Assembly (NCBI RefSeq): GCF_964204865.1
Contig: NC_135250.1
Location: 20,389,395 to 20,453,394, forward strand
DNA from: Styela clava
Taxonomy: Eukaryota; Chordata; Ascidiacea; Stolidobranchia; Styelidae
Direction of reading: 5' to 3'
DNA length: 64,000 nucleotides
Below, piece by piece: positions 24,047 through 54,580 of this stretch. Position 1 is the stretch's first letter. Each line of letters begins with the position of its first letter. A program made the translations under genes and the position numbers. Below the pieces are notes generated by a model. It did no database searches, was not told where the DNA came from, and was given only the letters and a program-made list of their open reading frames with translations.

Positions 24047-24101
24047 CAAGAGAATAAATGATGCCGTTTATATTTTGATTAATGTGATAAATGATACATA
24101 C

Positions 24102-24662: not shown

Positions 24663-24739
24663 CTGTAAATGTTCTAAGGTATATTAATGTAGCTAAATTT
24701 AGACCGCGACAGTTTATGTGGGAAATATTCATATCTTTT

Positions 24740-25060
24740 TCTGATTTCAGACTCAGATGGCGTCACTTGTAGAGCCCTGCTTACGAGTTTATTAATAAAG
24801 ATTTAAACACTGTATAGTGATAAAATACATTTTCTCCCAAATAAATACGTTGAACAACTACTTTTCGTACAACATAAAGTGACGTTGTCGGAATTGAAAA
24901 AACATGTATATATATTTGTTTTATGACCAAATTCTACAATACGTATGTCATACTAATTGTCTGATAAGTTCGTTTTAGAAGATATTTAGTTTTGGTAATG
25001 AATAAGATTTATTTCTATCGTTATACTTGGAATTTGAATCCGCAAGCACAATACTAAATT
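24740..25060. repeat. Upstream flank duplicated from 30990-31300
   Basis: Collinear with the 5' flank of the intact gene: 'agatggcgtcacttgtagag', 'aacaacatatagtgacgtt'-like and 'tgaatccgcaagcacaatac' occur in both in the same order. This marks the extent of the segmental duplication that created copy B. Confidence 0.8.
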
Positions 25061-25232
25061 GATTTAATTGAAAATTTACATTGGTTCTTCGAAAGGTTAA
25101 TTTATCTTATTTTCCTAAACTGATATAAAAAAAAATCTGCATCGTTAAAAAATGTTTAATCGTAGCTTCCTTAGTAACATGCTAAACACTTCCAAAATAT
25201 GCTCGAATTTTTACAAGCAATGTGTTATTTGT

Positions 25233-25380
25233 TAGGCTAAAGTTGTTCTAGGAAAATTCGCCGTAGGAAATTTTGCCGTAGAAATTCTCGCCGCAGGAAA
25301 TCTCGCCGCAGGAATTTTCGCCGCAAAGCAAAAATCGCCGCAAGAGCATTTTGCTGTAAAACTGCGGCGATTTTCCATGC
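25233..25380. repeat. gccg-rich short repeat (partner at 31316-31627)
   Basis: Opens with 'ggctaaagttgttctaggaa' and then repeats 'ttcgccg(c/t)aggaaat' several times, ending with 'cgccgcaagagcattttgctgtaaaa' and an inverted 'gcggcgatttt'. The repeating word yields an apparent Ala/Ala-Pro-rich minus frame that I regard as a by-product of the repeat. Confidence 0.7.
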
Positions 25381-25390
25381 AACGCGAGAA

Positions 25391-26204
25391 AATATTAATA
25401 TAATGATGTTTTCTATGAATCGATGGGCCCACGAAGTAATTCAATGGGGTAATTCCACGACACAAGGCTAATAATTGATCATAAAGCGACTTCGTTTGCA
25501 TACTTTCCTTTTAATTAAAATAAAATTCACCGTTCAAGCTTTCACCGCAGTTTTATTACCTGATTCTGTGCGTGAATTGTTTGATCATAAGGGAATTTAA
25601 AATCTACCAATCAAAATAGTTCGCTGGTAGGCCGTCTAACCTGTCTCCAGATGGGCGGTTTCACTACACGGTGAGATAAACTTCAGTATCGTACTATAGA
25701 CGCAAAAACTCATTTGCACATTCCTAATGCCCAAAATACGAAAATGGAAGGCAGTTACGTTGGCTTTACTAAAATAAATCGGGATGAAAGAGAATGTGCG
25801 CAATACCTGCATTGCTCGTATGTAACGAGGAATGAATCATTACGTCTGTCTAAACTCCAGAACCAACGTGACAAAAGTGACAAAAAGCATTCACAGGTAG
25901 GGACGTTTACATCAGTTTCTTGGCTGCCACGCGAGTAACATTTGATTAGAAAACAACAGATCGGGTTTCTGTCAGGTGAAACAAAATTTAGAAACCATCT
26001 TGATGTGACATTCGTCAGGCTGTATCAAAGACGGTTCCTAATATAAGAAACCTCGTCAAACAGTCCCAAGCCCAAGATTCCCATTGATTGTATACTAAAA
26101 AGCTTCAACCCTTTTTTGTCTCTGGTTTGTTTTGTGCATTCCACAAAAGGTCGTAAAAACATAATACAATCAAACACGTATAGTTTTTTGGAATGGCGAA
26201 CAGG
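25391..26204. other. Intergenic, no gene seen
   Basis: No motif, splice-supported exon or recognisable repeat end. The open frame at 25714-25938 has no visible homology. Confidence 0.45.
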
Positions 26205-26968
26205 GGTCGAACATGAGTGTTCGATGTCTGCAAGCTATTTTAATTTCAGTAATTAGTGTGTAAAAGAGTTTTGTAAAAACCACGTCTGTATATGTTTTCA
26301 TAGAAACCCGTTTTGTCGTTTAAAAATTTTGTGGAAGTATTCCTATTTATCTCACTTTTATTTCTCTCTCCTATTTGTTTGAACAAAACAAATTTGCAGA
26401 TATCGAGAACATACCATGAAATGATTTACAAGTGTTTTTTCAATCAGTGTATCGAATATATAATTTTGAACAAAATCGACTTTAATGCAGAATTAGTCTT
26501 GTCAAATTTCTTAAATTCCTAAATTTAAAATAATATTCAAAAATAACAAACACGAAAACAAAGACGTTGGTGGAGATTGATATCATCCGCCAAAGTATGT
26601 TTAATGCTTGGCTGCGCTATTACAGTCTCATTTTTAATTGGGCCATACTGGAAAGTTGTATATTTTTAAAACTATGGGACTTTCCTTTGTGGTAAGATAA
26701 GTTTCGCTAAAACTTGTTGTTTTCGTACTAGTTTAAAAGCAGTATCAGGTGCTACTTCGCCGCTGGGCACCACAATGATATTTTTCCTCTAGAGATAAAC
26801 ATATTCAAAAAAACCTAACGGCTTTACTGCGGTTGAAGCTTAAAATCACTAAATAGTTCATTTTCTGTTTATATTTTACGCCGGTATCATTTGCACACCA
26901 CAATGTCGGATACAACCAGAACACTGGGAATAAGCTACTTCGGAGTTTTCCTTGACCTGTTTCGACAA
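26205..26968. repeat. Direct repeat R2 (partner at 23275-24046)
   Basis: Second copy of the R1 block, located downstream of the stop codon of the intact cobalamin-binder gene. Its position relative to that gene explains R1 as part of a larger duplicated locus. Confidence 0.8.
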
Positions 26969-27059
26969 ACATTCCATTTACCAAAATCAACTCGCTTTTA
27001 ACATTGAAATGAGTATTAAAAATTCGTTAGTTTGGGCAAAACTCTGCTTCCCAAGCAAT

Positions 27060-27203
27060 CATACGTTAGACACGAAACCATGATTGCTACCTCTTCGCTA
27101 GTGTGACCCACTTTTGCATTCGCTGCTTCATCATACGTTAGACACGAAACCATGATTGCTACCTCTTCGCTAGTGTGACCCACTTTTGCATTCGCTGCTT
27201 CAT
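27060..27203 (-). repeat. Perfect 72-bp tandem duplication, open on minus
   Basis: Two identical 72-bp units, 27060-27131 and 27132-27203. The unit is a multiple of three and on minus both copies stay open, encoding a 24-residue peptide unit that includes HTSEEVAIMVSCLTYD. The peptide is followed by CLGSRVLPKLTNF. I do not recognise it as a known domain; it lies 180 bases beyond the stop codon of the gene at 27387. Confidence 0.85.
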
Positions 27204-27327
27204 AGACCAAACCACCATGCTAACAAGTAGGAATATTATTTTTATTGACATAATTTCAGGATTTTTAAAATTGCCAACAAGTATTTAAATAAAGTTGAAA
27301 AAAAAAATAATAATAATCATGTCATTT

Positions 27328-27333
27328 TTTATT
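27328..27333 (-). promoter_or_regulatory. Polyadenylation signal AATAAA
   Basis: On minus, AATAAA lies 53 bases past the stop codon of the cobalamin-binder gene at 27387, a suitable distance for its 3' end. Confidence 0.6.
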
Positions 27334-27386
27334 CAGTAAAACTTTGCAATGTGTAAGTCTTGGTTCTCATCATTATATAATTATCA

Positions 27387-30300
27387 CTACCATGTTTTCA
27401 ATCTGAAAACTATCTGTTCTCCATCACTGGGAACATAACTGCTTACTCCTTTCGATAACAACTGTCCCGTGGCGCCATCTATCAGTGCCCAATATTCATG
27501 CGCCGTTGCGTTTGCTGCCACTCCTTGCATTGATGTAATATATTCTCCCCAAGTTGATGTTTGACTCACAAATCTGAATAACAAAACTACAGTTGATAAT
27601 AAAGGAGAAGGCAGAGGGGAAAAAGATGATCTGAATATGAATTCAGCTTACGTTATAAGTCCGTTATCTCTAGCTATGACCATTGCACCGTATAATGTAC
27701 TTCCATTATTTACAGTCACTGTGACGTCGGCATTAGAAACATTTCCAACGATTGGTGGAGGATCGGTGAAGATTGTAAGACGTACATCGATAGGAATAGA
27801 AGGTATCGGCTCGTTGGTGGGTGTGGCGGGAGAGCACGTTGACGGATCACTTGTGTTGCATTTCGGTTGATAGTCTGGTGGTATAGAAACTGCAACACAT
27901 AGAATGTTTGTTAATAAACTAAGGCTTGTGTGCAGCGTAGGATAACTTTTTGAATATTCGATTCTGGTGAAATATAGCTAATTAGTATAATAAAAAGATA
28001 CGAAACACATTTCTCACTCGTATTACCGCTCATTTTGTCGCAGTAAATCAAATAGCATGACAGAGTACTGTGAAACTTTATACAATGTTATCTATTACCT
28101 GGGTCTTGACATTGCCATTCGTCCATTAAATCCAAATAACTATCTCCTGCTAAAGCTGGTAGTCGTTGAGAAAATGCTCCTTCATTTTCGAGAGATCCAG
28201 GATTGACGGCCAGACTACCCATAATATCTCTGTAAAATAATCGAAATTAGCATAGTATAGCAAATGCAATATAATACTCAACAATGTATTTAGGGTTTGT
28301 TTTATTGTTAAACGAAACTTAACTTAACAAGCTTTATGTAACCCACCGACATCTCCATGTACTTGGTTCTTCCTCATCTTCTTCCATAAGCCCCAATACC
28401 GACGATGAAGATGAGTACTTATTTCCTATCCATACGTCGCCACTTTCAGTGATCACTTTTGACCTCAAGAAAGATACTAATTTTGCAATGGATCTTTTGA
28501 TTTTTCGTGTCAAATAACAAGGTCGAACTTCAGTTTTGACACAGGAAAGAGCAAGAAGAATTTGTGCTGCATCATCTATAAAAATTGTTATAGTGAATAT
28601 AAATTCGCACATAGAGGATTATTAAACAATAAAATGTTAACGACGAGAATTAATTAACGTTTGAACAATTTTCTATTACATATTGATAATAATACTCTCA
28701 AAGTGAGGGTCACTATTGACTCCATGGAATAGAATTTAGAAACTTACCGACAGAATGAACATCGCCGAAGCTTCCATCAGTATTTTGTCCTTTTAATAAT
28801 TTTCCAACAACCCAGTTCCTTGTCTTTCGCTTATTGACACACAATGCTCCCACTGCTAACCCAAACCGATAGTATCTGTCGTAAGGAATTGTTTGCGGTT
28901 TGCCTGAAAAAAAATCGTATTTTGCGTGGGTTCGTCATTTAGAAATATACATGAAAAAGAGAATTTGCAAGAGCGGCCTATTTTCAATAAAACAGGAGAG
29001 CAATGCTCAAATATATGGACAGGAAGATGCCGTAACGCTATCGGTAAGACCTCAGCTGCGCCCCGAATCGGAACGGAATGAAGTTTACCATTCACCATAA
29101 AAACTATTCCAATGAGGTAAAATAAAATCGAATATCGATACATCAATCAGAGGGAAAAGTGTTTACTTTGCGCCCAATAAAATAGACGCGTCCATGCCTG
29201 ATGTATATGGCGATTCATCTGCAGTTATACATTGTATGTATTTTATTTGTCTGAGGCTGTTGCCTGAAATCCACTAACTGGGGCTCATATCCTATCTTTA
29301 ACGTGAAGTGTTTGGTCAACAAATTCGTCATATTCACGGAATGGGATATGCCTGAATGACGTTGGAACGCGAATTTAAAAAACATGTTGTGTACTTTTAA
29401 GAGGCGACTACCAATTGTTTTGATCATGCGGGTGATATTCGTATCAATTTCAAGCATAAGTCAACAAGTCAGAAACTAATATTTATCAAGCGTATGTTGT
29501 TTATGGGAATATGATCACTCTCGCCTCCTGTTGCTCGAAGCACTCACAACCGAGACAGATCAAGATTTAAAAAATCAACTTTATTCTCGCGTAAATTGTG
29601 AATGCTAATCCTTTTCAACAAATGTTATCGGTTTTCCCCGGTTGAGGTTACACCATTTAGAATAATAGTGCGTCATCGACACACGTTCAAATATTTTTCA
29701 CTGGATTGAATCATTTGTTTTCCCCATAAATTCGTAATGCTGCGAAAAAACAGCAGTTCAAACAATTCACGCATGTTATGTTTGATTTCCATCATGTATC
29801 TGAAACTAATTTAGTAGGGTATTCACAGATCCAATGGTTTTTTTAATTCCCATTAAGCTTTTTAGTCCTATTTTTCACGTGATTCGATCACACGTAATCT
29901 TTGGGTTATAGAAAAAAAAATTTCCATTCAACATTTAAAAAAAATGATATTGTTTAGAAATTTTTGTCCAAGAGATAAGAAGATGCCGATTAGATTTTGA
30001 TAAGTGTAATCGATTATACTCACCATCATAAGAGAATTGTTTTTTAACTCTTTGATTCAGAACCTTCACTAAATTTTTTCCAGCAAAGGATCTTGGATTT
30101 TTGCATGAAGATTTCACTGCCATCACATATAGAGCCAACTTTCCAATATTCATGCTGAAAATATTAGTGTTTTTTTAAAATATCATATCATGATAATGTG
30201 GTTAATTCAGGCACCAAGTAGTGATCAAAATATTCACTAGTTTTCTAGAATACGAGTATTGTGTAATAATGTCATTTGTCAAACATTCAAATCTGAGCAA

Positions 30301-30816
30301 ATCACCTCACCAATCACTGCCAAATATTATTTCAGAAAATATCAAATCTTGTAAACAATTTATATATTTGTGCATCGTTACCTATTTATGTCGTTATTAA
30401 TTTCGATCTCCATCTGTTCCAGCGCTTTGCATCTACCAAAGAAGTTGTCTTGAGCAGATAACTGTAAACTTAAAACCACTTCTGGTGTATTTGTCCAGCC
30501 CCAATTAGGGTGGCGCAATTCCATTAATCTATCTACCGTGGCATTGATAACTGAAATCACGTCCTCGCTGTTATCGTCTCCTGTAAATAATTCAAGGTAT
30601 ATTAATGTAATTAAATTTGGACAGCGACAGTTTATGAAGGAAAAATTCATATATTTTTTCAATTTACATACGTCCCATATAAAAAAAAACTTAGCCAGAA
30701 GTAACTTAATAACTCAATTAAATTGTCTTACCGCATGTTTCATATGTGGATTCTTCCTCGCTTACTACAAACCCCAACAGCATACAAACAAAAAATATTT
30801 CCCTGAACATCTTCAT
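27387..30816 (-). CDS. Cobalamin-binding protein (transcobalamin/intrinsic factor family), copy C, intact
   Basis: Secreted vitamin B12 carrier by family. Exons on minus: 30732-30816, 30382-30580, 30024-30154, 28748-28903, 28347-28575, 28099-28229, 27652-27889 and 27387-27573. All have GT-AG ends and continuous phase, giving 451 residues. Exon 1 encodes a hydrophobic leader after MKMFREIFFVCMLLGFVV. Exons 2-5 form the helical barrel (LMELRHPNWGWTNTPEVVLS, QNTDGSFGDVHS, AAQILLALSCVK). Exon 6 has LPALAGDSYLDLMDEWQC, the conserved segment before the linker. Exons 7-8 form the beta domain (VRLTIFTDPPP, TAHEYWALIDGATGQLL, PSDGEQIVFRLKTW at the end). Cysteines are frequent, as expected for a secreted protein. 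Which vertebrate member it matches best cannot be decided by eye. Intron 3 holds a MITE fragment. Confidence 0.92.
28991..29100 (+). mobile_element. MITE-like repeat, partial copy 3, in intron 3 of the cobalamin-binder gene
   Basis: Contains 'gagagcaatgctcaaatata' and 'tggacaggaag', the start of the family seen at 41880 and 43938; the opposite end is not present nearby. Confidence 0.55.
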
Positions 30817-34312: not shown

Positions 34313-37081
34313 CTAACGCAGTGGCTTTCTTTCCAATGAGCTACCGGGACTATGGGCGCTATTTACAGTTCCGGTGCTAGACCTACAACTGCTCAAAGTG
34401 TCGTAGTGTGTATTGGGCACTGGCTTCCACGATGCGCTAAGGTATGTATTTGCATTAGAATCTATCTTCGGGTTGTTCTTTTTTGCATCATATACGACCA
34501 CTCGCGCCGAGTTTGTTATGACGGATTCCCGTCTATTATATCGATGATGTGTAAATAAAAATCGAACATCACTGTTCCTCCATTTTCTTTTAACAATTCT
34601 CCAGTCCGCTTTGTTCACAACGCAATACAATAAAAATATTTGAAGTCCTTGGAGGCCATTTACTACGGTATGTGCTGTTAGAAGAGTAGTGGTCGCACCA
34701 GGTATATTACCTAGAATACCCAGTATCCACGGAATTGCAAGAACTGGCATTAATATTGCAAATGTTCGAGTCACAGATAGCATATGTTTCACATGCCTTT
34801 TTTGTCTGGCAGCCGACCCAAGAGGTATGGCACCGCTACCAATCGATGTGATCGAAGATCGATATCGTGGCGGGGGTGTACTGCCACGACTTTGGATGGC
34901 GTTCCCATTTGAGTAACCGTATTGAGTGTTGCTCGATTCAAAGTTTCTCACTCGGTAAGTTTGAATTTTTCTATTCATCTTCATAACACCTTTTGTTATG
35001 TAGCACAAAATGGCTATATTTGCCACAACGACAAATATAATTGGACCAACAGCAGTCCATACAATTCCGCTGTCAGCACTCAGCCAACATCTTTCATACA
35101 TTGGCGTTGAATATGATGTATTTTGTGATTTCTGTAGAGTAATTTTATAGGCTTCAGCCAAATCGATATACTTGTTGTTTGATATCCCGTATGCTGCCGC
35201 AGGTACCGTAAAAACTAGAGGCGCACACCAAGCAAATACAGTTTGCACTATTGTCAAAGTAGGATATTCCACGTTCAATGTTAGTTTCGGAAACATCTTC
35301 ACGAATATTCCGAGTCCTTCGCAAAAGGACCAAAAGCCCGTGGCAAGTAGGAAATAATGAGTCATTATGGTGGCTGCTACACATCCGTTATCATTATGAT
35401 TTCTTGCGAAATCGCTCCAAACAATAACTAAGTGGAGACACAGTAACGAAACACAAAGACTAACTTGCGAGTTTGTTCGGTTCGAGTTCATACCTGTTGC
35501 TTTTGGTGCGAATGTGGAATCAATACCAGCCCCGTGTCTCGCAATCAATATAAATAAAACTGTAAGTAACAAGCAGCATATGCTTGCAATCTCAAAAGCC
35601 AGAGAGATATAATGAACCTCGGCCGGCATAACCACCGAACTATTCAACATTAATAAAGTCACGAAGGTCGTCGTGTGTTCGCACTCGCACGTCACTCCGC
35701 CGGCATTTGATTTCGTGGATCGGCATCCTTTGTCACTCCACGTTCCGGTTGTTGTGAAATCAAACCAGACGCACACTCGCTGAACATTTTTGATTCTTTC
35801 GTTGGATTTCAAGCCTTCAAGTTCGGTGAAGTCATTTTGGAGATCCACAGAATAAGTAACTGGTAAACTTTCTTTGATCATATCCAATTTATCATTTTCG
35901 CGATAATAAGCAACCGTCACAGCAGTTACATTTTCCGGTATTCTAGCATCTGACCGCGTCAAGTTTCTAGGCATAGTACTCATGTCTTTCCATAATGCTA
36001 CAACCACGGTTAGTTTGGATACTTGTTTTCCACTAATTTTTGTCGCATTCAACACTTTTTTTATTGGAATTTGGACATGAACAGAACTAGCTTCGCTCGG
36101 CTTTATTTCCAGCGAAGAAACATTGTCGCTTGTTGTAACGTTACCATCATTATTTCTTGTAGAAATTGGATTCAAGGATATTGTTTGTACAACGACGGTG
36201 ACGTCTTCTCTAATAATTTCGTCATTATCGAGCTTTGCGAAATCTTCGGAAACAGATTCTTCAAATTTCCTTATTTTTGAGGCGGCGTCCCCAACGAGCA
36301 ATTCGAGATCTGTGGAAATGAAATAACTCAAATTCAACTGCGTGCTAAATAAAAACTACTTATCCACGAAATGAGTAATTGGAAATTTTAACGCGCTGTA
36401 CAAATTTTGTATATTATCCTACACTTATTAGAGAAAAAATATTTTATTGAATAAAAAATCATGCTTACGTACTTTTATGAGCTGTTTGTGTCGGATCGAG
36501 TTCTGGATATTCTGGTGATGTGCGATTCACTGGTTCTGCAATAATTATAGAAAGAGCAAGATTCAATCACTGATCTAAGTCGAATTTAAATCAGAAAACA
36601 AAAAGTCAAAATATGGATTAATTTCGAAGTAAAGTTTACTCTCGTTTATTTTTGCGTTAAGTTCAGATTGTGAATAAAGTATTTTTTAAGAAAGATCGCG
36701 TTATGGAGTATGGATGACAAAACAGGAAGCACCGTTAGTTGGCGATCCGCGAAAGTTTGACCACTAGATGAGCTGGTAATGTTCTTCTATTACGTATATG
36801 TTATTGCATTATTGATGATTGAACTATTACTTATAAACAATATGCTAGAATTGTGTATGTATATAATTGCCATGTATATTAATAATGAAAGAACTTACTT
36901 TTTTCATTTAGTGATTGAGAATTGATTCCGTCAACTATTAAATAAAAATGGCAAATTTAAAAAACAAATCAAGGCACACTCTGTAACAGCGACAATTTGA
37001 AAAGATTTCACAATAAATCGAAAATTTACCTGCGCCCAACGTTAAGAGTAGCACAATAATCAACATATGATAAACATCCAT
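34313..37081 (-). CDS. Adhesion-type GPCR with GAIN/GPS and 7TM in a single exon
   Basis: Cell-surface receptor of the adhesion (B2) family. Exons on minus: 37030-37081 (signal peptide MDVYHMLIIVLLLTLGA), 36899-36934, 36473-36535 and 34313-36309, for 715 residues with consistent phase 1 junctions. Exon 4 alone encodes the GAIN domain (about 60-265), the GPS (Cys230 to Phe266, with paired Cys and Trp and CECEHTTTF, so autoproteolysis would fall at His-Thr|Thr), seven hydrophobic helices (about 281-616) and a 95-residue tail. ECL2 carries the expected Cys-Trp (YERCWLSADSG). The third intracellular loop is long (about 65 residues, with a TPPPRYRSS stretch). The ectodomain before GAIN is short, with no extra adhesion domain. 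The ligand is unknown. It differs from the neighbouring receptor in having no introns in the core. Confidence 0.92.
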
Positions 37082-40703: not shown

Positions 40704-43700
40704 TCATGTTTCAAAAACTTCTTCTCCTGTAAATTCAACCAAATCTAGGCTGTGACCAAGATTTGTCTGCCCTATTTCTTCATTTGAATTTTTAACGTTT
40801 GGTTTTGCATTTTTTCCAGGTGATGTAAAAGTAGACCCAATCGATACCGTTGTTTTTCTTGTTGTTTCTGAAGCAGTCGAGGGGGTTAATGTTCTTCCAA
40901 ATCGCGTGGTAGCACTTTGTGGAGCAAAAGGTTGTGCAATTGTGGAACTGATGACATCTTCTGCAAAAACAAAGCGTTTTGAAGTAAGAAGCGTAAAATT
41001 CTACAGTATTTTACATTTTTTGTTCATTTATACTAGTTTAGTTTTTGCCAACTTAACAACATACAATTTCATCAATGTGTCATATTACCATTTTTGTTCT
41101 TTTGGAAATTACATCTTTGTGTTATGGCCGTCGTCCAGGCTTGCCTCACATCCTTTCGCCTTAAACAGAAGAAGTAGAATACAAATACTCCCTGGAAGAA
41201 AATGAAATGTTATCAAAAGACACCATGCAATTTCTTTCTCAGAATCAACAGCAAACGAAATAAAATTGCTCATTCGTTCATTATCCTATAATGTGATATG
41301 CAAGTTAGATACTTTAATTTAGAAACGATGCATAAAAGTGAGTATCAACGGACTTCATTGCAGGTGATGAATATCGTAACAGAGTTTGTCCAAAAAATTC
41401 GCTTTAAACTAAATGTTAAATTACGAAGATTCAAAATGCTTGACAGTAGTTACATTTTTATATTAAAATTTAGCATCATTGAAGGGCAATCGTGATTTAT
41501 GCTGAGTTTCAATGAAACGAAAACTAAAAAGTGCTAATAACCAATATTCACAAATATACATTTGCGCTATTGTATATATATATATTTATATATACTTATA
41601 TTCTCAGATACAGGATTTCTATATGTATGGCATTGTGTTTCATCGGCTATGATTCAGTCAGTTTCTAAATATATTTACCTGTGCCGAAGTCGTTATAGCA
41701 AAAAGCCATCCAAATACTTCCTGCACTAGGGCATTGCTTGATACGACCAGTGGTATAGCAAATATCCAAGCCACACCGAGAAGCAAGGCTACAAGTATAG
41801 CACGTAGAACATGGATAATGGGCTTCTCTTCAATCGAACACTGTACCTACAAGTAGATATTTTTTTGACTTGAAGTAAAACAAGAGAGCTATGCTCAAAT
41901 ATATGGACACGTAGAGTCACATAATTTTGATGACGTCATAGCGAAAAAAAGTCATAGCCCTCTGGAAAATTTTTATCTTTAACCACTGAAAATTTCAAAG
42001 CAATTGGTCCAGTATTCAAAGAGAAAGGCGATTTCTTCAAAACGTGTTAACGGAGACAAATAATAACAATAACAACAAAATTTTGAAACGATCGTTATGC
42101 CCACTACGTGTCCAATTATATCCTAAGACACATAAAAAAAAATAATCCTACTGATTTCCGACCCCATGTTATTGCTTTAATAATGACAACAGATAATACA
42201 ATGTTGAATGTTAAAAATATTCCAACAATCAGAAGAAATCCGAAATAGAGTGAATTCCCTTGCAACCAACAATAACTTTCGGCAACGTAGGTTGACCATA
42301 CATCAGTTTCGCAACCTGAAAATAGTGAATGAGTTTTAAGAAAATTAAAGGAGTTAATGTGTAATCGCCCAATGTAGATTTTGATAAAATACCAGTTCCA
42401 CTTTAAAAGCAAAGTGAATATTCCCATTTCAAAAACTATGTAACTCGAATAGCATAAGAGCTATCGAAAAATCAAATCAGTTATATGTGATGATTTTTGG
42501 TTACATATTATAGGTGGATATTTGAGCAGGTGGGTAGAAAGTTTTACCTGCGGGTACTCATCAAGGTATATTTTTACTTTATAAAATAGTTTCCGACTCA
42601 TGCTCTAAGACAGGGGTGGGAAAGGTTTTTGGAAAAAAGGTCAAAATACCTAGACTGGCGGAACATGTAAATCTGACGTAATAATTTGCCTATCATTCTT
42701 CACGAATTAGGGTGCAGAAAAGGTTTGCAGCAACAGATTATTAGAAAACATCAAAAACGATAGACTAAATTACATGGCGAGAATGCGTAAGCTATGAACA
42801 AAAAATACCGTGAAAAAAGAAAGGGAGAGCGTTATGAGGAATTTAACAAAACTTTTTCGGCACTAAATTGAAACTCAAGGGCTGCGCATGACCGCACACG
42901 ACAACGCACGAGGCACAAGGTGGAAAGCACGCCGTCGAGTCCAGTGAGCAAGAAAACGTGAAGTTTTGTTATCACCCCATAACATAAAAGTCTGTGGGAA
43001 CCTAAACTACACTTACCCAGACTACGATCACAATATAACAAGCCTACTGCACCATACAGATTTCAATAACAACAACTATGTAGTGCATGCAGAATTGGTT
43101 AAAAGCAGAAATTTATGGTAACATCAGGCGAGCCAGATTGAATCGCTCAACGGGGCGTAGTTTGTCCATGTAAGCTCTAAGCATATTGCAGGGATATCGT
43201 ATAATGAATTAGTCTTACCTGCTCCTTTATCCCATTGCATATACTGCGATAAAATCGAGAAACTTATAGTAGTGAGAACAATTGCTGCTGCGACAGCATA
43301 GACAACAATTGCAGATTTAACCCCTTCGTCTTTCGCGTGCCTTCTATCAAACGTTTGAACAAACATCCTGCGAAATTGTGGAAAAATTTTACTTCATAAT
43401 AGCAGTGGAATTCTGAGGTTCAGCCTAGTTAGTAGTAACCTATTACCAATGTTAAATTATGTCTGTCAAATTTAGTCAGCTTTGCGCAATTGATGTATGC
43501 TCAATGTACTGAAGCAGTACTGTACCGTACTTTCACACTCGGGGGCGCCAAAGTGCATTGCTGAGAACTTCGTCGAAGTAATGGATATTGACCACATCAA
43601 CATCTGACTGCTGAAAATCGATTGATTGAATATTTTGGTAGTAGAATGTAATACCCTAGCGGTAAGCGCACAGTATGGGTAATTAACAAAACGAAATGAC

Positions 43701-46700
43701 GTATTAAAGTGTCTTTTTGTGAACAAAATTTAATTAAAATTGGTCGGAAAACTGTGTATTTTCAAATCTTTGGAGGGGACGTTGCAGGTCTCGTCGCCCC
43801 AGCGAGGAATGAGAGCAGAGGAAAAGTGAAAAAAGGGTAATAGACTTCTAGGAACTTCTTCCTGGTACCGTAATCGAATAGCCCATTTACTATGAATAAT
43901 AGCGATTTTACCCAATAACAACAATCACCTAAACAACAAGAGAGCAATGCTCAAATATATGGACACGTAGACGAGAGCGAATCAGTCCTTACCGGTACCT
44001 TTGACGCTACCGGTACCATCAAGAAAATTTTAGATTTTCAGTAGCAGGAATTTTGCAGAATCGAAACGTACAGCCAGTCTCCACACGGACTAAAATCAAA
44101 ATCCGTGTTCCCATGGATAAAAAAAATTCGGACGAAATTTCAAATTTAATAGAATTCATACAAAATTTAAAAATAAATAAAAGTAATAGCCTTCTAGAAA
44201 AAATTCAATCTTCAACTACTGAAAATTTCAAAGCAATTGGTCCAGTAATCAAAGAGAAAAGCGACTTTTTAAAAACGTGTCAAAGAACAAGAACAACAAC
44301 AGAATATTGAAACGATCGCTGCTATGTCTACTACGTGTCCAACAAGAATAGCAACAACACGAATTCATCAAAATCATGTGTACACTAAGTGTCCAATAAT
44401 GTCTGAACAAGTATTCTCACCTGTACATTGTTATGCTCTCTACCGCCATCCATCCCCAAGCTGCTAGTAAGAAGAAATGTATAAGGGCAGATACAGCAAC
44501 ACAAACTTGTCTGTTACGCGTCGCTTCTATCCCAATCAAGAATATGAAGTAAGCAATGGAAAGGCAGGCACATAAGTTAATATGAGTGAATGCAGATCGC
44601 ACGCGACGAAGTTCTCTGTATAAACGAATTGAATATTACTGATATTTTGTTTTTGTCTGGCATAAAACTTTGAATCAACTTCAAATTCTGGAATACCCTT
44701 CCAGCTAGCAATTTTCTGACAGTGTTGACTGTTGAAGTTCTTCATATACCGCACCAAACACCATGCATATAATGAATGGAGCAGAGATCTTTCAAGAAAA
44801 CCCAATCGAAAATATAAAGACGGCTTTGTACACCAATTAGGCCCGTAATGCGAAATATTTTATTAGTAAAATACTTAAAATACATAGGATGAATTGCATA
44901 ACTCACGGTACAAACAAAAATATCCATATGGTTAATGCAAGGCATACAATACAGATAATCATTCCAATAGTGCTCACAACATCCAGAGCATAATTTGGTA
45001 GCACGTGTTCACTCTGAATAGAAAAATATTTGTTAACGTGCTATTTAATGCTATATTTATATATATTTCAATACAAAAATTCAATATCTATGATCAATTT
45101 GAATAACAAGTCAATTAAAACCAGCATGTTATAATTTAAGATGTACGAATATGATCAGCCACAAAAAATGACTCGTTTGGTTCATAGATGATTTTGCACT
45201 TTTCAACCGTTTGTCTGAACTAGAAAATAGCGGAACTTCTCCTCAAAGGCCGTACGCTATCCAAGCGAACCAATACATTTTTTCAGTAACTCCAATAAAT
45301 CGGCTGATGGGGATTAGATCCCAAAAAACTTCAGACAAAATATACACTAATTCAATTTATTTTTATAAAACGTATTTTCTGCTCTACATTGTAACGCGTC
45401 AAGAACTGAGCGCAGTCGTCTAAAATTGTGATATTGTATTTTAGATTGTCGAGTTTAAAACATTATTACTCAAAGTGAGATGGAAAACAAGTTTTTATAT
45501 ACACGGTGTTCATAAAGTCTTGTTACAATTTCATTTTTGTTATAAAATCTGTTCTCCATATGCCCGTTTATTTTAGTGATTCAGTGTTTATTTGAGCTTT
45601 TTCTTCAACAAATATAGCTATATGTGCAAAAAAACTATATCTGGTATCTATACTTGGAACCATAAACTTGGAATCAAACTTAGGTTCATTCAGATGTCTG
45701 TATACATCCAAATTGAATCTTACCACAACAACTGCAAAACTTGTTGTATGATCACATTTGCATCTGACAACATCGGTTCTCTGACCAATAACCGGAGGTT
45801 CAACGCGACACCCGTCTGTTTTCCATAACTGCTCTGGGTGATCATAATATCTACATTCCGTTTTGAGACACTAAATAGCGAGAGTACAAAAATGAAGCTC
45901 CACCTCCATTTATAATAGTGTAAATTTATTAATTTAATATTCTCTGAATTTAGACATTGAATATTTCTGACGTTGTGAAAAATAAGTGAGGTAAGTATTT
46001 GAATCATTATCGTATTCTTTAGCGTACCGTTCCTGAAGAAACATTCTTATTGTCCGCTATTTGCATCGAAAACTCGACTGGAACGCTGTATGTTTGTGTG
46101 CCGTCTGTAACTGTTGCTGATATAACCTAAGCATTTGAATAAATTGAAATATTTACACTGACAAGTCTGAGTAAAAATTAAACTATTTACAAACCGCAAA
46201 ATTTTCGGAAATTTCATCAAGAAAGTATTTATTTTTAATAAGTGAGAAAGCCAACGGCACATTTTTGGTTTCACTGACTAAAAGCTATGATCAATTTCAA
46301 TCGTCATTATCTTCATGATACACAGAATAATAAAGTCATTTGAGTTTTTTAGCAAGAGTTGGAACCGCCGTGATTTGTTACCAAACGTTTCAAATCTACA
46401 GTTGCCAGAAATTAGGCAGTACCTTAAATGTACTTACTGAATTCACTTCGACTTTTTCATCGGTTGGAAACAACTCATCATCATCATAAGACATAAAAAC
46501 AGCGCGAAATTGCTTTTGGTTTCCGTATCCTGGTGACTTTCCCGGCAACGGAGGATCAGCTAACACTTTTATATTTGATCTTCGATCATTACTTGAATGC
46601 TCCAACGCAAGGTCGTCTTCATGCTCAAGTTTTACAACCTGAAGTAAGAATTTATTTTAGCTTCTAAATTATTCCGGTACTATAGTCTCATACCAAGCAT

Positions 46701-49700
46701 AAATAGTAATGGCTTAGGAAGAAATTGTTCTTCTTGATCGCTATGGTCCCACAGCAATTTTAATCAGATACCACGTAAGCTACTGTCTAGTGCTGACTGT
46801 ACTCTTCGCAGTCTTCGTTCATGAATAAACAAATCGAGTTAAGGAGATTATTGATTATCTATACATCGATAATACATATTTGACTAATTGGGTGAGAGCG
46901 ACTGGTATATATGTACTTGAATGTTTTACATCACAGATGACTTATCCAATGACGTGTTATTCATTTGCATATTATACCACTGAATTACAATTGTCAATCA
47001 GTCCATGTAATTGATAAATCGCTGAGGTGTTCTCCTAATCCGAAAAGATTCAATTTCTGATATATTATATATATTATGAAGACCGAAAGTAAGGCCGAAT
47101 GATGGAATGATCGCCTCGCTGGCACATGTGATATATTTTCAAGTCAGCAATAAGAAATGATTTAAATTGAACGCAATCTTTTGGTTTAAATTAGCGGTTC
47201 TCAAACTGAATGCCGCGGCACCCTAGTCTGCAGGAAAAAATTTTAACGTGTGCCCCGAAGCCTTTGTTATTTTTAAGAAATTGATTGAGTTCAGTCGGAA
47301 TCAGTTATTCCGTCCGAACACAAAGAGATAGTTCAGCCGAAAGGTGAGGCAAATATCGAAAAGATCAAATTCATCATCAGTTAATTGCATTGTTTGGACC
47401 AATATTTTCGAGCACTGTGTTTTGAAGCAGCGTGTGGTGGTTTTGGTCATTTGCTTACAACCCCTACTCTACTAAATGATCAGTTTTAAAGCTAACAAAA
47501 TATTGTTTCCATTTGCATCTTTATGGCTCTACGAATTTAATTTTTTACTCTGATAGAAATCAAAAGCAAAACACGACATTTGGAAATCGAAAAGAAAATG
47601 TGAGTGCACTTGGCAATGGCGAGAGCAAGTTTAATTCTTATTTACTTCCAAAACCAAGCCCATTTAACGCATTAGTTTGCATAATAAATGACTTTTGTCT
47701 GTAATAAGTGACTCAATTATTTTACAATCGTAGTATTATCAATAAAAGGCCGGATCACATTCAAACTTAATTGGATCGAAAGCATGGCCGACGAGACTCA
47801 TCACTTAGATTCTAACAAATCTAGGCAAACCCGTACTGCAATCTTCAGCATGTAGCATATTATTAAACAATTGGCGATTTCGTATTGTGATTAAGACAGA
47901 TAAATCCCAATTGCAACAATATCATAATCTGTTTGCCCATCCCATTTCATGCCCATTTTAATACCTCAACTTCAATTCCATCCGCTTCAAATTTGTGTCG
48001 TGTATTATTCGAATCCATCTCGACATGTTGTGCAAATTTCTCCAATGCTTTTTCTAGTCGAGTTCTGAATCCCGGTCGTGCTTTGTGTGTTTTATTACGT
48101 CCGTGTCGTGATAAATATCTCCTGATCTTTGCAGTGGCTGCAATGATGTCAGAAAATACTTCAGGGGGTATCTGTAAAACATGCATTTAGTCAACATTTC
48201 AGTAGTGTTTTCCAGTTCTCTGAGTTCATAACTGTGGCTATTTCTGATTTATCCCTGTGTTTTTATCGATTTAATTTTACGATATATATACAATTAGCCT
48301 GATATTAAGCAAGCATCTTAGCTAGTTTTTGTATAACGACTACAGAGTATTCGACGTGTTTATTCAACTTCCCTGGTGCACAAATTGCTTCTTATTATCA
48401 AATTAAAAACTAGTACATTATACCAGTATCCTTTTCCTTTGACACATTTTAGCTTGTACATAAATTTATTTCATAATTGAGACGATGAGATGTACAATTC
48501 CTCAATTGCCATGATATTTACCTTTGTGCAATACGACATATGTATACACATAATAGGAAAGGGCGTCAGGATTCAAATATCCAACATATAATACTCCAAG
48601 CAAAAATTTTGTTGTAAACATGTGGCAATTGTAGTTTGCTATTCCACAAGTCGAGTCCTGGCGTCTTCATTATTTAAAATTTGCATAGTATAATTATATT
48701 CATATATTAAATTACTATATATGTTCATGAAGCCCTAATACAAACAAATTTCGGTTATTAAGTCAAAACCTATACATATATATTAACCAGGTTTGTTTTA
48801 TTTTAATCACTGTTTATTTAAGATCTTACTTTGATTGCAACATTGCCCAATATCAGTTGCACGAAGCATAAGTAAAGTGCTTTTACCTATGTACCTTGTA
48901 TTATGTAATTTATGTCTTAGAAAATTTCACCTTTGAATTATTTTCCGACATTTCGGATAATATTTCTATGATACGTGTTATATTATTTGTCGTGAAATTA
49001 CTCAGAAGTAAAAATATCGCGTGTAATTTTCTTGTCGCCTGCTTCATTGTTATATTTTTTTGTTTTGCATCAACAAATATCTGCAAATTAAAAAAAAAAG
49101 TGTGAAGATATAAAATAGTATACGCACCCCAAAAATAGAATCCCAGATTAATCTCAACCATTTATAGGTCATCACCCTTATAGTAAGTAACCTTATTAAA
49201 TAACACTTTATATAAATGATATACTTCGCTTAAAGAATCTGATAGACTTCTGTCGCATTCCATCCGAACCAAATCTGTGAACTCAACAACCGGTTTACCG
49301 CTACAGAACATTAATCCTTTTGGAATTCCTGTTGAGTTGTTTAAATATTATTAGGGTCTTGCAAAGATATATATTTGGTGATTTGTCAAACGATCCTATT
49401 CCAACTATTGACCGAATTCAGAGCATAACTTTTTAACCGTAAACGGTGAATCAAATGACAGAAAAATTATTTAATTAAGTTATATATCGTCACGCTAATA
49501 ACCGAATTGCGTGAGTCATTTTTGACGATTTTGAGTTTTTTTTTTTATAAAATAGGTATTTATGTAATGCTGCGCACCTGTATGTTAACTCAGATTTTAT
49601 TTTAAGAATTCCGAAACCCATAGAGATGGAGATTTAGTATGACATGCACATTTGTGCAATTGTTCGTCATAATGAATTATCATTGTTACCGCAGGACTAT

Positions 49701-52700
49701 TGTGACGTCACAAGGGCAAAATAACCTTGGCGAAGTATTTTCGAGTTTTTGCATCTCGGATTCTAGCTTAGCGCGTATTAATTTGAATTTTTACTACAGT
49801 ATAGGAAGACATGCACTTGTGATATTCACCATCCGAGTCAAATTCACCTTGGTTGGCTTTTATATTGGGTGAATTGCTGTTTTATTCTTTATATTTAATC
49901 TTAATCTTAGTCTTATTTCGGTGGGTGTGCAGAACGTGTTATATTGATGAAATATATATTTTTAAACATAAAAAATAATGCAAATGAAACTGATTAGCTA
50001 TTTTGAGGATTAGACTTTGTAGATACTGAAAATTACATTCGGTTTTGGAATGTTTCGTTTTCAGGACTGGTGCATATAATAAAGTTGCAAAATTGCGTAT
50101 GTCCCCAAATCATAGACACATTTCTGCCTAAGTCACAGTGCGCCATTATGACGTCACTTAACTGCGTCATACAAATTAACTTAAATCCGACTACGATCAA
50201 AAAATTGAACCATGGCAAATTATTGACTCTCAATGGCATAACATCATCATCAGGAAGTTTTTTACGTTTTTCTCAAAACTGCTAAAAATGACTTACGCAA
50301 TTCGGGTATTAGCGTGACGATACATAAGTTTCATATTTGGAGAGGTGCATGTACAAGCATCGGTGGTTTTAATAAATTGCATTAATGGCAGCCCTGGATT
50401 TGTTAACGACAAATTCATTAAAATAGTGAGTGGGGTCATAAATCGAAAGCCGCAATTGCTTAAATATATAGAAAAGCCTGTTATATAAAACAAATGTGAT
50501 GATTTCTATTTCTCCGATTCCAATGTAGGCTACTGATGGTTTGTTCTAAAGTTTATTGATTATTCTTTTTACGATTTCGATGTGATGCAAAGTTATAACT
50601 TTTGTAGTTTCGTTTCATCTACCACTTACCATTAGGGCATTTCTCCACAGAATATCCAAATCTTCTAACTTTTGTTCTTGGAAACGTAAGTTCGGACTCA
50701 TTTAAAAGAACGTATTTGTCACAAAATTTTATTGTTTTTTGGGGTCGTTTTGGTACAGAAAATGTGGGCATACTCGTATTGTAGAAATCGTCTTCTGGTC
50801 GATGTATAGCTGTTTCATTTGAGGTTTTATTTTTACCATCTGAATTCTTTTCCAGGCAACCTAAGTGGGGTAAATGTTATCGAATAGTTGATTAAAAGTA
50901 TTATTAAAACTCTTTTCATTAACATTCAGATTTTAACTGAAATTTACATTACGTGCACTCAGTCACCTACCGGCGTATAATGGTCGCTCACATATTAGAG
51001 TTGTTTCTACCTCATCACACGGTGCGGACGGTTCTGCTTCTTGTCTCTTGTGCGTGACCTCTGGCCGTTTTTCAATACAATTGCTATTTCTGTCAAAAAA
51101 ATGTTTACAATTTATTCGACATGTAAATTTACTGCTGTTGTATTATTACGCAGTTCAAATCCTGCCTTTCCGTCTACTCATTCAAAAACTTGGAATATGC
51201 AATCGGCATAATGGTCTGAAAATATAAAAGAATACAGAGTGTATACATCTATTGAAATAAGTTATTAATTAGTTGGCATCATTTAATAATTTATGTATAG
51301 TATAAATTCAAAATCGCTCACATAAAAAATTTCTCCGCAAGGTTGCTGTTTAGGGGAACTTTTCTCCCAAATGTTGCACAATGATTTGGCACATGTGGAA
51401 ATTTTCTTCCATCTGTAACGTGGGTGTAAATACTACTGTTATACACCACGGAGTTGTGCACGACATCATCTGTAAAAGTTTAAAGCAATTTCTAAAAGAA
51501 AATTTTTCCTTGATCGTTTTTCATATCAAATTATGTACAGTTGTTCCATGCTATCATAATATTAGTGGTAATTTATCGGCAATTTCCTGTTAGTTTTCTC
51601 TTCGGGATAGTAGTATTTAACGCACCAGAATATTGGAGAAAGCTGGTCTTACTAATTTTTGTAATTTTCAGTGTGAATCGGTGGGCATTAGTCAATATCG
51701 CAGAGACGTTCTTCGAGTAATTCCGTACGTCTGTCGTCACATCCTATCAAAGCACTTTCATTCATTTGAGACCCCTATTCTGGGAGTGAATACATTTCGC
51801 TTTAATTATTCAATATCATAAAAACAAAAAATCTTACTAGGATAATGGCAAAGATACGCCGGTAATTTACGACCACAGCTTAAACTTTCCCATCGACCAT
51901 TCTTTGCTCGTGATACAAATGCGCAGAGTTCGTCGTTTTTTGTTTCCACTAGTGGGTGTCCTGTTCTCCAGTGCTAAAAAACAAGTCATTGTATAATTAA
52001 ATGCAGTCAGACTGGGCTGTACATTTCAAATTGCAAACCTGGTAGTGCTGTGCTTGGTGTTCATGTTCGCAGTTCTCATCGACTTTTCCGACTGGCATGC
52101 CGTTATCTCCTCTAATCCATAATACTTCACCATCTTTAGGTGATATCAAATATCTTTTCAGTCCTATCCAAAATCCATTGATAGCCGAACTTTCGTTGGT
52201 GCCTTGAAGTAGTTAAATACGAACTCAGCATGCGTCACATGTATATTGTTAATATAAATTTTACTATTACTAGAATAATCAAAACAACACCGAGATCAGG
52301 TGCTGGACAATAGACATAAAACACATAATAAATGAATCTGAGTGAGCACTTGAAACTGGCATAAATTCTGTATTTATTTAACTTTCATTCACACTATATT
52401 ATGGTTTTTGAAAAAAATAGAACACAAAAGATTAAAAAAACCTCTGTTCAACATGATTTTTAGTTGTTTTTAGTGAAGATGCTCTATAACTTTTATGCTT
52501 TCTTACCGGTTTTTTGGGGAGCCATTTCAAAAAGTGATGCAACTTTGGCATTGGAAACAAAGTTTCTTCTTATAAATCTTTGAATTGTTTCTGAGTGGGA
52601 AGTTGCTAAAGTTCCGCCGTCCGATATGCACTTAAAACGAGCTTCCCAATATGTAGACAACCGAGTATACAAAACATACTTGCTGCCATTGGGAGCTCTT

Positions 52701-54580
52701 GCCGCATGAGTTTTTGATTGCTGAGAAGCTGAAAAGTATTTTAGATTGAATAAGAAGCCCAACAAAAAAAATAGAGCCAAGAAAGAACCAAAATTATCCT
52801 GCTATATATATTCGAGGCAAGCACTTGTCCATTGTAGACATTTACAGCAAATATTTCGTTTTGAGTATAAAAGCTACAGTATACGGTATCCTCATAACGC
52901 TCTAACAGTGATATCATGATATCCGTTAAATGCCTATATCCATTGCGATATTTTTACACATGATACAAAAAAAAACGTCACTTGATCCCCAACCTTGGCT
53001 GCATTAAAAATGAACTCGGATTAGCCTTCACATAATCAGCATGGTATTCATAATGCTATTTCTCCTTACCCAGATGTCCTTTGTCACCAAAATCATACGA
53101 ATTACATAAGTCTTCCGTACATTCTTGACATGGTGCGCCATCTCCGTCCCCTCTAGATATGGGACATGTATACATGCATCTTTTATAGAGACCATCAACA
53201 CGCACAGTTACGCATACCTGTGATTGAAATGGACCATATATTATGTAAATAAAACCTTGAAAACCACATAGATTGTAATAAAAATAACTGTAAAGGTCTC
53301 CGAAAAGACACTTCCAACTAAGCTATGTACAACTTGGAAGCGCTTGATCCTGCAGAAGAAAAGTGACTTTGGTTAAACATCAACAGTTTAGTAAACCACT
53401 TGAAAACCACTTTGTGTTCGATAATAGACACACTGAATACCAATATTGATCGAATAATCTTTCACTAAGCCTTAGTTTCCTGTGTTTGGAAAAAAATTCT
53501 TTCTTTATTATTTTTGCTGTTTAGTATATAGTTATCACAACGACATGGTTTCGCCCTAATTTTACCACAACAAATCTGTTAATTATCATCAATTCCGTGA
53601 GAAATCAGAACTGCACATGTTTCAGTATATCAGCAATTCGTAATTAATGGCTGTCTCCGATGAGTTTTAGTTTGATAGCAGTCATTAAAGTTAAGTCCAC
53701 AAAAACCGGCGATAGATTAGGCCGAGATTAGCTATCAGTACTTTTAAATTCAGGGTGATAAATATTTTGAATCAAATTGATGGTAAGGAACATGTAAAGA
53801 AATCGCGAATGAACTTTAATAATGGATTTCAAAAAGTCTGAATGGTACAGTATAAAAAGAATTTTTTTTAGGTCGGGGAAGCGTCCATCCTATGATTAGT
53901 TAAAAGATTTGAATACATATCATAACTTGGGGCAGCACATAGCTAGTACAGCGCTGTGCTAATTTTAGTACTTTTTGTTATTTCATTTAAAAACGAACTA
54001 TATGTTTTTAATGATATCCAAAATTTTGCTGATAATTTCAAAACGTTTACCTCGTTATCTTGACAACGAACTGGTTCTTTTTCGTTACATCTCCAGTTTT
54101 CATCTTCGCCTTCACAAGAGTAGCAATATAGGGCGGTTGCTGACAAAATACATATGATCGTAATCGTTCTGATACTAGTGGAAGGGACCAAAGATAGGAT
54201 AAAACTGGATCAATAGTAGTTAAAATCCCATTTGAATATTTTTAGTTTGTTTCCATTTTGCGTATTTGTCCGGTCATAAACACTGAGCTACTCACCCCCA
54301 ACCAATCTGTTACCTAGAAAAGCATTTGTTCGTGGCCTATCTAATGATAAAACCGCATGCCCATCACCTCGCCCAGTGGCCCGGTTTAGCCTTCGTAGTG
54401 GTCAACTCTTTTACTCAACCATTATCCTTATATATGAACATATTCTAAGTATTGTCTCTATCACAAAATGCACAAAATCTATCGCAACCTTTATCGCTTT
54501 ATGAATTTTAGCATAATAAAACAAAATTACATACCTCGACCGAGGAAACACAAAAGGATCGCGAATATTTTAGTCACCAT
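40704..54580 (-). CDS. Adhesion GPCR with N-terminal Ly6/uPAR-like and C-type lectin domains, 22 exons
   Basis: Exons on minus: 54535-54580, 54051-54139, 53070-53217, 52507-52728, 52039-52202, 51838-51973, 51322-51469, 50971-51089, 50630-50860, 49225-49328, 48931-49080, 47965-48171, 46438-46638, 46028-46126, 45724-45870, 44907-45013, 44421-44615, 43219-43367, 42152-42315, 41679-41846, 41113-41191 and 40704-40957. GT-AG ends and phases agree throughout, giving 1108 residues. Order: signal (MVTKIFAILLCFLGR); ten-Cys Ly6/uPAR-like domain (21-86, ending CTEDLCNS); C-type lectin domain (95-267, INGFWIGLKRY, LPAYLCHYP); linker; hormone-receptor-like Cys module (about 405-455, EKCPNGIPKGLMFC, VRMECD); GAIN (about 456-688); GPS (exon 15, CKCDHTTSF); 7TM (about 740-1005); helix 8; Thr/Ser-rich tail. 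The ligand is unknown; the lectin part suggests glycan or protein binding. The Ly6 exons could belong to a separate gene, but the phase and acceptor fit argues for fusion. Confidence 0.85.
41880..42117 (+). mobile_element. MITE-like repeat, copy 4, intronic
   Basis: From 'caagagagctatgctcaaat' to 'ccactacgtgtccaatta', sharing 'ctgaaaatttcaaagcaatt' and 'ggtccagtattcaaagagaa' with the copy at 43938. It lies in the intron between receptor exons 20 and 19. Confidence 0.65.
42612..42720 (+). mobile_element. hAT-like left end, partner not found
   Basis: Starts caggggtgggaaaggttttt, like a hAT terminus. No matching right end or 8-bp duplication was found. Intronic in the second receptor gene. Confidence 0.35.
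43938..44342 (+). mobile_element. MITE-like repeat, copy 5, intronic
   Basis: The longest copy, from 'caagagagcaatgctcaaat' with 'tatggacacgtagacgagag' to 'ctactacgtgtccaacaa'. The ends gacacgtag and ctacgtgtc are inverted. It lies in the intron between receptor exons 18 and 17. Confidence 0.65.
47193..47290 (+). mobile_element. hAT-like end fragment
   Basis: 'agcggttctcaaactgaatg' followed by 'ccgcggcaccctagtctgcagg' resembles a hAT left end; no partner end was identified. Intronic between receptor exons 13 and 12. Confidence 0.35.

What the first reader, a model, noticed from the sequence alone, without database searches (positions are those of the whole stretch)
40704..54580. Receptor joining a Ly6/uPAR-like domain, a C-type lectin domain and an adhesion-GPCR core
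Seen: 22 exons with consistent phase encode signal peptide, a ten-Cys domain ending CTEDLCNS, a C-type lectin fold (FWIGL, LPAYLCHYP), a CPNG Cys module, GAIN, GPS (CDHTTSF) and 7TM. Established: adhesion GPCRs carry diverse adhesion modules, some with lectin domains. Inference: a three-finger Ly6-type domain at the tip together with a C-type lectin is an unusual combination that I do not recall from standard members, so this may be a lineage-specific receptor, for example in recognition or allorecognition.
Basis: partly seen in the sequence, partly recalled or inferred. Interest (0 to 1): 0.8.

Follow-up and report, generated by a model that had tools for sequence, protein, structure and literature searches.

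The report
Three-finger plus lectin-fold adhesion GPCR
A sea-squirt-like animal genome encodes what looks like one cell-surface receptor that carries a snake-toxin-shaped (Ly6) domain and a C-type lectin-like domain in front of a self-cleaving adhesion GPCR, a domain combination whose halves are known separately in other animals.

Summary
The minus strand from 54580 to 40704 gives a 22-exon, 1117-residue model; all 21 introns are GT-AG and the phases fit, though I chose exon edges by hand with phase as a guide. Pfam finds 7tm_2 (89.5 bits), GPS (33.8), Lectin_C (30.7) and, on exons 1-3 alone, Toxin_TOLIP (26.4, cut-off 21.2). UPAR_LY6 stays below cut-off and no GAIN model matched. The tip is therefore LU-like. 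The lectin fold lacks the recalled calcium/sugar motifs. LU exons 2-3 and CTLD exons 4-6 are each flanked by phase-1 introns. No listed start exon resembling a signal peptide lies between them, so two genes are less likely, but no transcript was available and short LU-only splice products stay possible. The genome looks tunicate. Neither half is new: starfish LU domains predicted inside adhesion GPCRs (PMC9410279, PMC11595613) and amphioxus adhesion GPCRs with Lectin C (PMC2246102) are in print, and this genome has a shorter CTLD-7TM gene (L009). LU plus CTLD on one receptor is a new variant as far as my searches show. Allorecognition is unsupported.

The parts
54535..54580 (-). Exon 1: start codon and signal-peptide-like stretch (MVTKIFAILLCFLGR), ends phase 1
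   Evidence: model; donor score 8.5 in leave-one-out matrix; no signal-peptide program was run
54051..54139 (-). Exon 2: first half of LU domain (ATALYCYSCEG...CQDNE)
   Evidence: Toxin_TOLIP over exons 1-3, 26.4 bits
53070..53217 (-). Exon 3: second half of LU domain, ends CQECTEDLCN; donor phase 1
   Evidence: shuffle control
52507..52728 (-). Exon 4: CTLD N-terminal third (WEARFKCISDGGTLA)
   Evidence: acceptor score 7.2 leave-one-out, 9.0 with all introns; Lectin_C
52039..52202 (-). Exon 5: CTLD middle (FWIGL)
51838..51973 (-). Exon 6: CTLD end (ELCAFV...WESLSC...YLCHYP), ends phase 1
50630..51469 (-). Exons 7-9 (51469-51322, 51089-50971, 50860-50630): linker; start of CPNG module
   Evidence: only Pfam match GPR128_N 19.9 bits, below 27.2 cut-off
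49225..49328 (-). Exon 10: continuation of the CPNG cysteine module (IPKGLMFC...MEC)
46028..49080 (-). Exons 11-14 (49080-48931, 48171-47965, 46638-46438, 46126-46028): GAIN-like region
   Evidence: position before GPS only, no Pfam GAIN match
45724..45870 (-). Exon 15: GPS, CRYYDHPEQLW...CKCDHTTSFAVVV
   Evidence: GPS 5.1e-9 on this ORF
41089..45013 (-). Exons 16-21 (45013-44907, 44615-44421, 43367-43219, 42315-42152, 41846-41679, 41191-41089): seven-transmembrane domain
   Evidence: 7tm_2 89.5 bits; best solved relative ADGRL3 2.8e-34
40704..40960 (-). Exon 22: Ser/Thr-rich cytoplasmic tail and stop
   Evidence: highest total codon score of the 22 exons, 18.2

Best explanation
This is a single adhesion GPCR gene of a tunicate. 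[quoted passage not shown] Shown by sequence: exon structure, phases, LU-like, CTLD, GPS and 7TM matches. Inferred from established adhesion-GPCR biology: the chain is cut at the GPS (CDHT|TSFAVVV), the two pieces stay together, and binding of a partner by the LU and/or CTLD modules shifts or pulls off the N-terminal piece so that the new N-terminus TSFAVVV acts as tethered agonist on the 7TM and triggers G-protein signalling. The CTLD probably binds a protein rather than sugar through the classical calcium site. Because each module is flanked by phase-1 introns, the ectodomain may have arisen by exon shuffling.
For: Phase-consistent 22-exon model. Domain matches. Shuffle control for LU. Full-protein search of the genome: 21 of 42 matches tile this locus, and the other 21 lie within residues 623-1021, the GAIN/GPS-7TM part. 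Between exon 1 and exon 4 no listed ATG exon (donor score over 4, phase 0 or 1) looks like a signal peptide; the best 10-residue hydropathy is 1.59, from out-of-frame reading of exon 3. The exon 4 acceptor scores 9.0; 5 of 657 other AGs in the locus are as good or better. LU exons 2-3 and CTLD exons 4-6 each have 1-1 flanks; 8 of 21 introns are phase 1, so this is modest evidence. A second CTLD adhesion-GPCR in the same genome also has a 1-1 CTLD exon (L009).
Against: No cDNA. Exon 3 donor is the weakest of 21 in leave-one-out scoring (1.9; 6.2 with all introns). Three other acceptors would splice exon 3 in phase into short LU-only products: 52901 (score 2.5) and 52720 (9.2), both with hydrophobic GPI-signal-like tails, and 52998 (7.0), with a shorter tail. 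Codon bias is weak and does not decide: exon 3 +0.08 per codon, a value that 5 of 147 intron ORFs exceed; the 52901 tail -0.14; intron ORFs mean -0.12; exon 1 -0.25. UPAR_LY6 is below cut-off; GAIN is not matched; no fold was predicted.
Confidence: 0.76

Rival explanations
1. Two neighbouring genes: a short Ly6 protein (exons 1-3 plus a tail exon in intron 3, for example 52901-52741, RYEDTVYCSFYTQNEIFAVNVYNGQVLASNIYSRIILVLSWLYFFCWASYSI*) and a separate CTLD adhesion GPCR whose start was missed.
For: The tail ORF can join exon 3 in phase and ends in a hydrophobic stretch. Single-domain, often GPI-anchored LU proteins are the usual kind (PMC6600238 abstract and passages; PMC11595613 Discussion, first part). 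Exon 3 donor is weak.
Against: The 52901 acceptor scores 2.5, with 134 of 657 other AGs as good or better, against 9.0 for exon 4; the 52998 acceptor is better (7.0) but its tail is short. The 52901 tail has an intron-like codon score. No AATAAA lies in intron 3, though the gene's own 3' end has none within about 700 bases either. Exon 4 has no in-frame ATG before its domain (read) and no signal-peptide-like start exon was listed; starts upstream of exon 1 were not examined.
Confidence: 0.15
2. One locus, two products: alternative acceptors after exon 3 give either the full LU-CTLD receptor (52728) or a short LU protein, for example by the acceptor 8 bases downstream (52720), which shifts the frame and ends in ...AIKNSCGKSSQWQQVCFVYSVVYILGSSF*.
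For: The 52720 acceptor scores 9.2, as strong as 52728, and its product has a hydrophobic end.
Against: Neighbouring acceptor-like sites are common, and the shifted frame may be chance. No transcript data.
Confidence: 0.07
3. The cysteine-rich tip is not an LU domain but another small disulphide module.
For: UPAR_LY6 below cut-off; phmmer of the segment found no PDB chain up to E 10; C8 and C9 are separated by two residues instead of adjacent (consensus recalled).
Against: Toxin_TOLIP above cut-off over the full profile, ten cysteines in order, C-terminal CN; 0 of 9 shuffles matched either LU family.
Confidence: 0.08

Closest known systems
Starfish LyAr2 (Asterias rubens) and LyAp2 (Acanthaster planci), LU domains predicted inside adhesion GPCRs; also XP_033635539.1 (PMC9410279, passages; PMC11595613, passages and first part of the Discussion)
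   Same: One N-terminal LU domain on a GPCR-like, predicted adhesion GPCR
   Different: The word 'lectin' occurs 0 times in PMC11595613; different phylum; sequences not available here for comparison, so a CTLD there is not excluded
Amphioxus adhesion GPCRs with Lectin C-type domain (PMC2246102, passages)
   Same: CTLD in the ectodomain of an adhesion GPCR in an invertebrate chordate
   Different: No Ly6/uPAR domain is named ('ly6' and 'upar' occur 0 times)
L009, second CTLD adhesion-GPCR gene of the same genome (C1:13291500-13301400)
   Same: Signal-peptide-like exon, CTLD flanked by phase-1 introns, 7tm_2
   Different: Three exons, no LU, no linker module; GPS 20.6 bits in the model, just below cut-off, 26.3 in the genome search; the overlapping GPS-7TM match is 27% identical
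Ciona adhesion GPCRs (PMC2396169, passages)
   Same: Tunicate; 24 of 30 unclassified
   Different: 21 of those 24 had only a GPS; the other three had LRR or EGF; no LU or CTLD is named in the passages seen
ADGRL3 and ADGRG2 (solved structures)
   Same: GPS and 7TM match, E 2.8e-34 and 2e-27
   Different: The aligned part is GPS-7TM only

Membership tests
Adhesion GPCR | Secretin-type 7TM (7tm_2) | tested here: met
   89.5 bits, cut-off 20.6
Adhesion GPCR | GPS motif | tested here: met
   33.8 bits, cut-off 22.5; CKCDHTTSFAVVV
Adhesion GPCR | GAIN domain | tested here: inconclusive
   No Pfam GAIN match on aa 470-738; the PDB search of the region gave only weak ADGRF1 matches (E 0.018, 0.033) covering the GPS end, and two unrelated weaker ones
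Adhesion GPCR | Autoproteolysis and tethered agonist | not testable with these tools
   Sequence HT|TSFAVVV is compatible (recalled motif); needs expression
LU (Ly6/uPAR) domain | Profile match | tested here: met
   Toxin_TOLIP 26.4 bits (cut-off 21.2) on exons 1-3 alone; UPAR_LY6 20.8 (cut-off 24.8, not reached); full-length scan TOLIP 19.7, below cut-off
LU (Ly6/uPAR) domain | Ten cysteines and terminal CN | tested here: met
   Read in the translation; consensus recalled
LU (Ly6/uPAR) domain | Three-finger fold | not tested
C-type lectin-like domain | Profile match | tested here: met
   Lectin_C 33.9 bits, cut-off 22.6, profile 3-106 of 107; tetranectin 1.1e-6 as the sum of two weak stretches
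Calcium-dependent sugar-binding C-type lectin | EPN/QPD and WND motifs (recalled) | tested here: not met
   HPL and WES stand at these places (my alignment by eye)
ADGRG7 / GPR128 | GPR128_N domain | tested here: not met
   17.5 to 21.3 bits, cut-off 27.2

The most novel reading that the evidence does not exclude
A tunicate receptor class in which an LU domain has truly been shuffled, as a symmetric 1-1 exon module, onto a CTLD adhesion GPCR, so that two unrelated recognition folds act together as a cell-contact (possibly self/non-self or gamete) sensor; an 8-base acceptor choice (52728 or 52720) may also switch the locus between the receptor and a short membrane-anchored LU competitor.
Probability: 0.06. 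Interest if true: 0.75.

Novelty: new variant of a known kind. Interest (0 to 1): 0.42.

Why it matters
LU has been called only a 'proto-module', found mostly alone or repeated and in a non-homologous setting in only a few proteins (PMC6600238, passage). A gene with LU and CTLD exon sets both flanked by phase-1 introns would be direct evidence that LU can be shuffled into multidomain receptors. It would also show how tunicates, whose unclassified Ciona adhesion GPCRs were mostly reported with only a GPS (PMC2396169, passages), equip such receptors with adhesion modules.

Tried and rejected
Allorecognition: no second LU or CTLD match is listed in the assembly, no population data; the one ascidian self-marker paper opened (PMC6916515, outline and abstract) concerns another protein. 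Nothing in favour, so not adopted.

ADGRG7 identity from the CPNG module: rejected, GPR128_N is below cut-off in each scan that showed it.

Tandem copy of the receptor in the window: the neighbouring ORF at 34316-36355 has GPS and 7tm_2 only; reading 36.0-40.7 kb by eye shows its own short first exons and no LU or CTLD exon that I could see.

Other LU-bearing adhesion GPCRs in this genome: 0 of 60 GPS matches had one of 8 Toxin_TOLIP matches within 40 kb; 1 of 60 had one of 149 listed Lectin_C matches there. This test is insensitive: the window's own LU and CTLD exons, being split, are in neither list, and 150 of 698 lectin candidates were scored. A regex scan of 10 kb upstream of 20 GPS sites and 5.5-9 kb upstream of 4 more gave no LU-end or CTLD-mid motif. 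One CTLD-end-like hit appeared in L019 (sense) and one in L022 (antisense; only the first 20 were scanned on both strands), both of doubtful meaning. The own gene gave all three motifs. In L009 only the CTLD-end motif fired, so the mid motif is not fully sensitive. In the window one further CTLD-end chance hit appeared. The remaining GPS sites were not examined.

Codon bias: too weak to separate the models; exon 1 and most transmembrane exons score like introns.

COX1 search for the mitochondrial code found nothing. PDB search with the LU segment found nothing. Rfam and ARAGORN found nothing in the window. No paper held both UPAR_LY6 and 7tm_2. The novelty statement rests, in an open-access library only, with most papers seen as listings. 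UPAR_LY6 (PF00021) did not complete for the own genome.

Change after the filing check: one search showed further in-phase short LU products (52998, 52720); best-explanation confidence went from 0.78 to 0.76 and the two-products rival from 0.05 to 0.07.
Full report
What is there. On the minus strand, 54580 to 40704, I rebuilt a 22-exon gene from the raw sequence. Twenty-one of 21 introns are GT-AG, the phases agree, and the product has 1117 residues. I picked the exon edges by hand and used phase as one guide, so the agreement is partly built in. The frame closes between exons 1 and 2 only with the acceptor at 54139, which also gives a plausible signal peptide, MVTKIFAILLCFLGRATA before LYCYSC (read by eye; no signal-peptide program was run).

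Domains. On the full model Pfam gives 7tm_2 89.5 bits, GPS 33.8, Lectin_C 30.7, Toxin_TOLIP 19.7 (cut-off 21.2) and UPAR_LY6 13.2. On exons 1-3 alone Toxin_TOLIP rises to 26.4, above its cut-off, over the whole profile, and UPAR_LY6 to 20.8, below 24.8. Neither LU family matched any of 9 shuffled versions, 5 of which kept the cysteines in place. The family name mentions snake toxins because they share the fold; nothing here suggests a toxin. The CTLD matches tetranectin in the PDB (1.1e-6 as the sum of two weak stretches). By eye, the places of the EPN and WND motifs (recalled) read HPL and WES, so classical calcium-dependent sugar binding is unlikely. The GPS-7TM part is closest to ADGRL3 (2.8e-34) among solved chains, with ADGRG2 at 2e-27. 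No GAIN model matched, and the region in front of the GPS is called GAIN-like by position. The CPNG stretch resembles GPR128_N below threshold (17.5-21.3 against 27.2).

One gene or two. The serious rival is a Ly6 gene next to a lectin receptor, or a locus with two products. Exon 3 can be spliced in phase to three other acceptors that give short LU-only proteins: 52998 (score 7.0, short tail), 52901 (2.5, hydrophobic tail) and 52720 (9.2, hydrophobic tail, 8 bases past the exon 4 acceptor). Against two genes: the 52901 acceptor is beaten or equalled by 134 of 657 other AGs while the exon 4 acceptor (9.0) is beaten or equalled by 5 of 657; the 52901 tail has an intron-like codon score; and between exon 1 and exon 4 no listed ATG exon with a donor over 4 looks like a signal peptide. 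Starts upstream of exon 1 were not examined. Against my own reading: exon 3 has the weakest donor of the 21 in leave-one-out scoring, the codon statistics are weak (5 of 147 intron ORFs score above exon 3), and there is no transcript. I put the fusion at about 0.76.

Module logic. Exons 2-3 (LU) enter and leave in phase 1, and so do exons 4-6 (CTLD). Such 1-1 sets can be inserted without shifting the frame. Since 8 of the 21 introns are phase 1, this is modest evidence. The same genome has a second gene, L009 at C1:13.29 Mb: a signal-peptide-like exon, one CTLD exon with 1-1 flanks, and one exon with a GPS-like motif and 7TM (Lectin_C 51.4, 7tm_2 85.1, GPS 20.6, just under cut-off). CTLD adhesion GPCRs therefore exist here without LU.

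Genome context. The window lies in a 376.6-Mb assembly of 379 contigs. A GH6 exon (42.4 bits) lies 1.8 kb downstream of a cellulose-synthase ORF (Cellulose_synt 28.3 bits) in one 9.6-kb stretch. Their fusion is, from memory, a tunicate hallmark, so I call the organism a tunicate, by inference. The full protein gave 42 matches (41 of 125 candidates scored): 21 tile this locus, and the 21 elsewhere lie within residues 623-1021; no LU or CTLD match elsewhere is listed. There are 60 GPS matches, 56 above cut-off. In 5.5-10 kb upstream of 24 other GPS sites I found no LU-end motif.

How it probably works (inferred). As in other adhesion GPCRs, the chain should be cut at CDHT|TSFAVVV, with the LU-CTLD head on the N-terminal fragment. 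Binding to a partner on another cell or matrix would expose TSFAVVV as tethered agonist. The partner and the G protein are unknown.

Comparison with print. In starfish, LyAr2 and LyAp2 are LU domains that automatic annotation places in adhesion GPCRs (PMC9410279, passages; PMC11595613, passages and first part of the Discussion, which reports two GPCR-like proteins among 48 LU proteins). In amphioxus, Lectin C-type domains occur in adhesion GPCRs (PMC2246102, passages). In Ciona, 21 of 24 unclassified adhesion GPCRs had only a GPS (PMC2396169, passages). The LU review calls LU a proto-module (PMC6600238, passages). I found no paper describing LU and CTLD together on one adhesion GPCR (open-access library only, most papers seen as listings).

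Verdict. A well-structured gene, predicted only from DNA; a new variant of a known kind; allorecognition unsupported.

Noticed in passing
34316-36355 (-), first exons by eye to about 37079: A second adhesion-GPCR gene, GPS and 7tm_2 in one open 680-aa frame, directly downstream on the same strand.
   Followed up: partly
L009 (C1:13291500-13301400): Compact three-exon CTLD adhesion-GPCR gene elsewhere in the same genome.
   Followed up: yes
19493-30713 (-): Several exons resembling cobalamin-binding proteins, apparently in tandem copies by eye (Cobalamin_bind 24 bits, cut-off 25, on 20871-21230; DUF4430 29.4 bits, above cut-off, on 27390-27647).
   Followed up: no
11405-14698 (+): Heparanase-like exons: Glyco_hydro_79n 19.2 bits, below cut-off 23.1, on 14516-14698; 11405-11611 looks so by recall only, no Pfam match.
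   Followed up: no
27058-27203: Perfect tandem duplication of a 72-bp unit (2.0 copies, 100% matches), overlapping a coding-like ORF.
   Followed up: no
52901-52741, 52998 and 52720 (-): Acceptors after exon 3 that would give short in-phase LU-only products, two of them with hydrophobic ends.
   Followed up: partly
G000:C10:10361678-10407481: Three GPS sites within 46 kb with near-equal scores, two of them identical.
   Followed up: no
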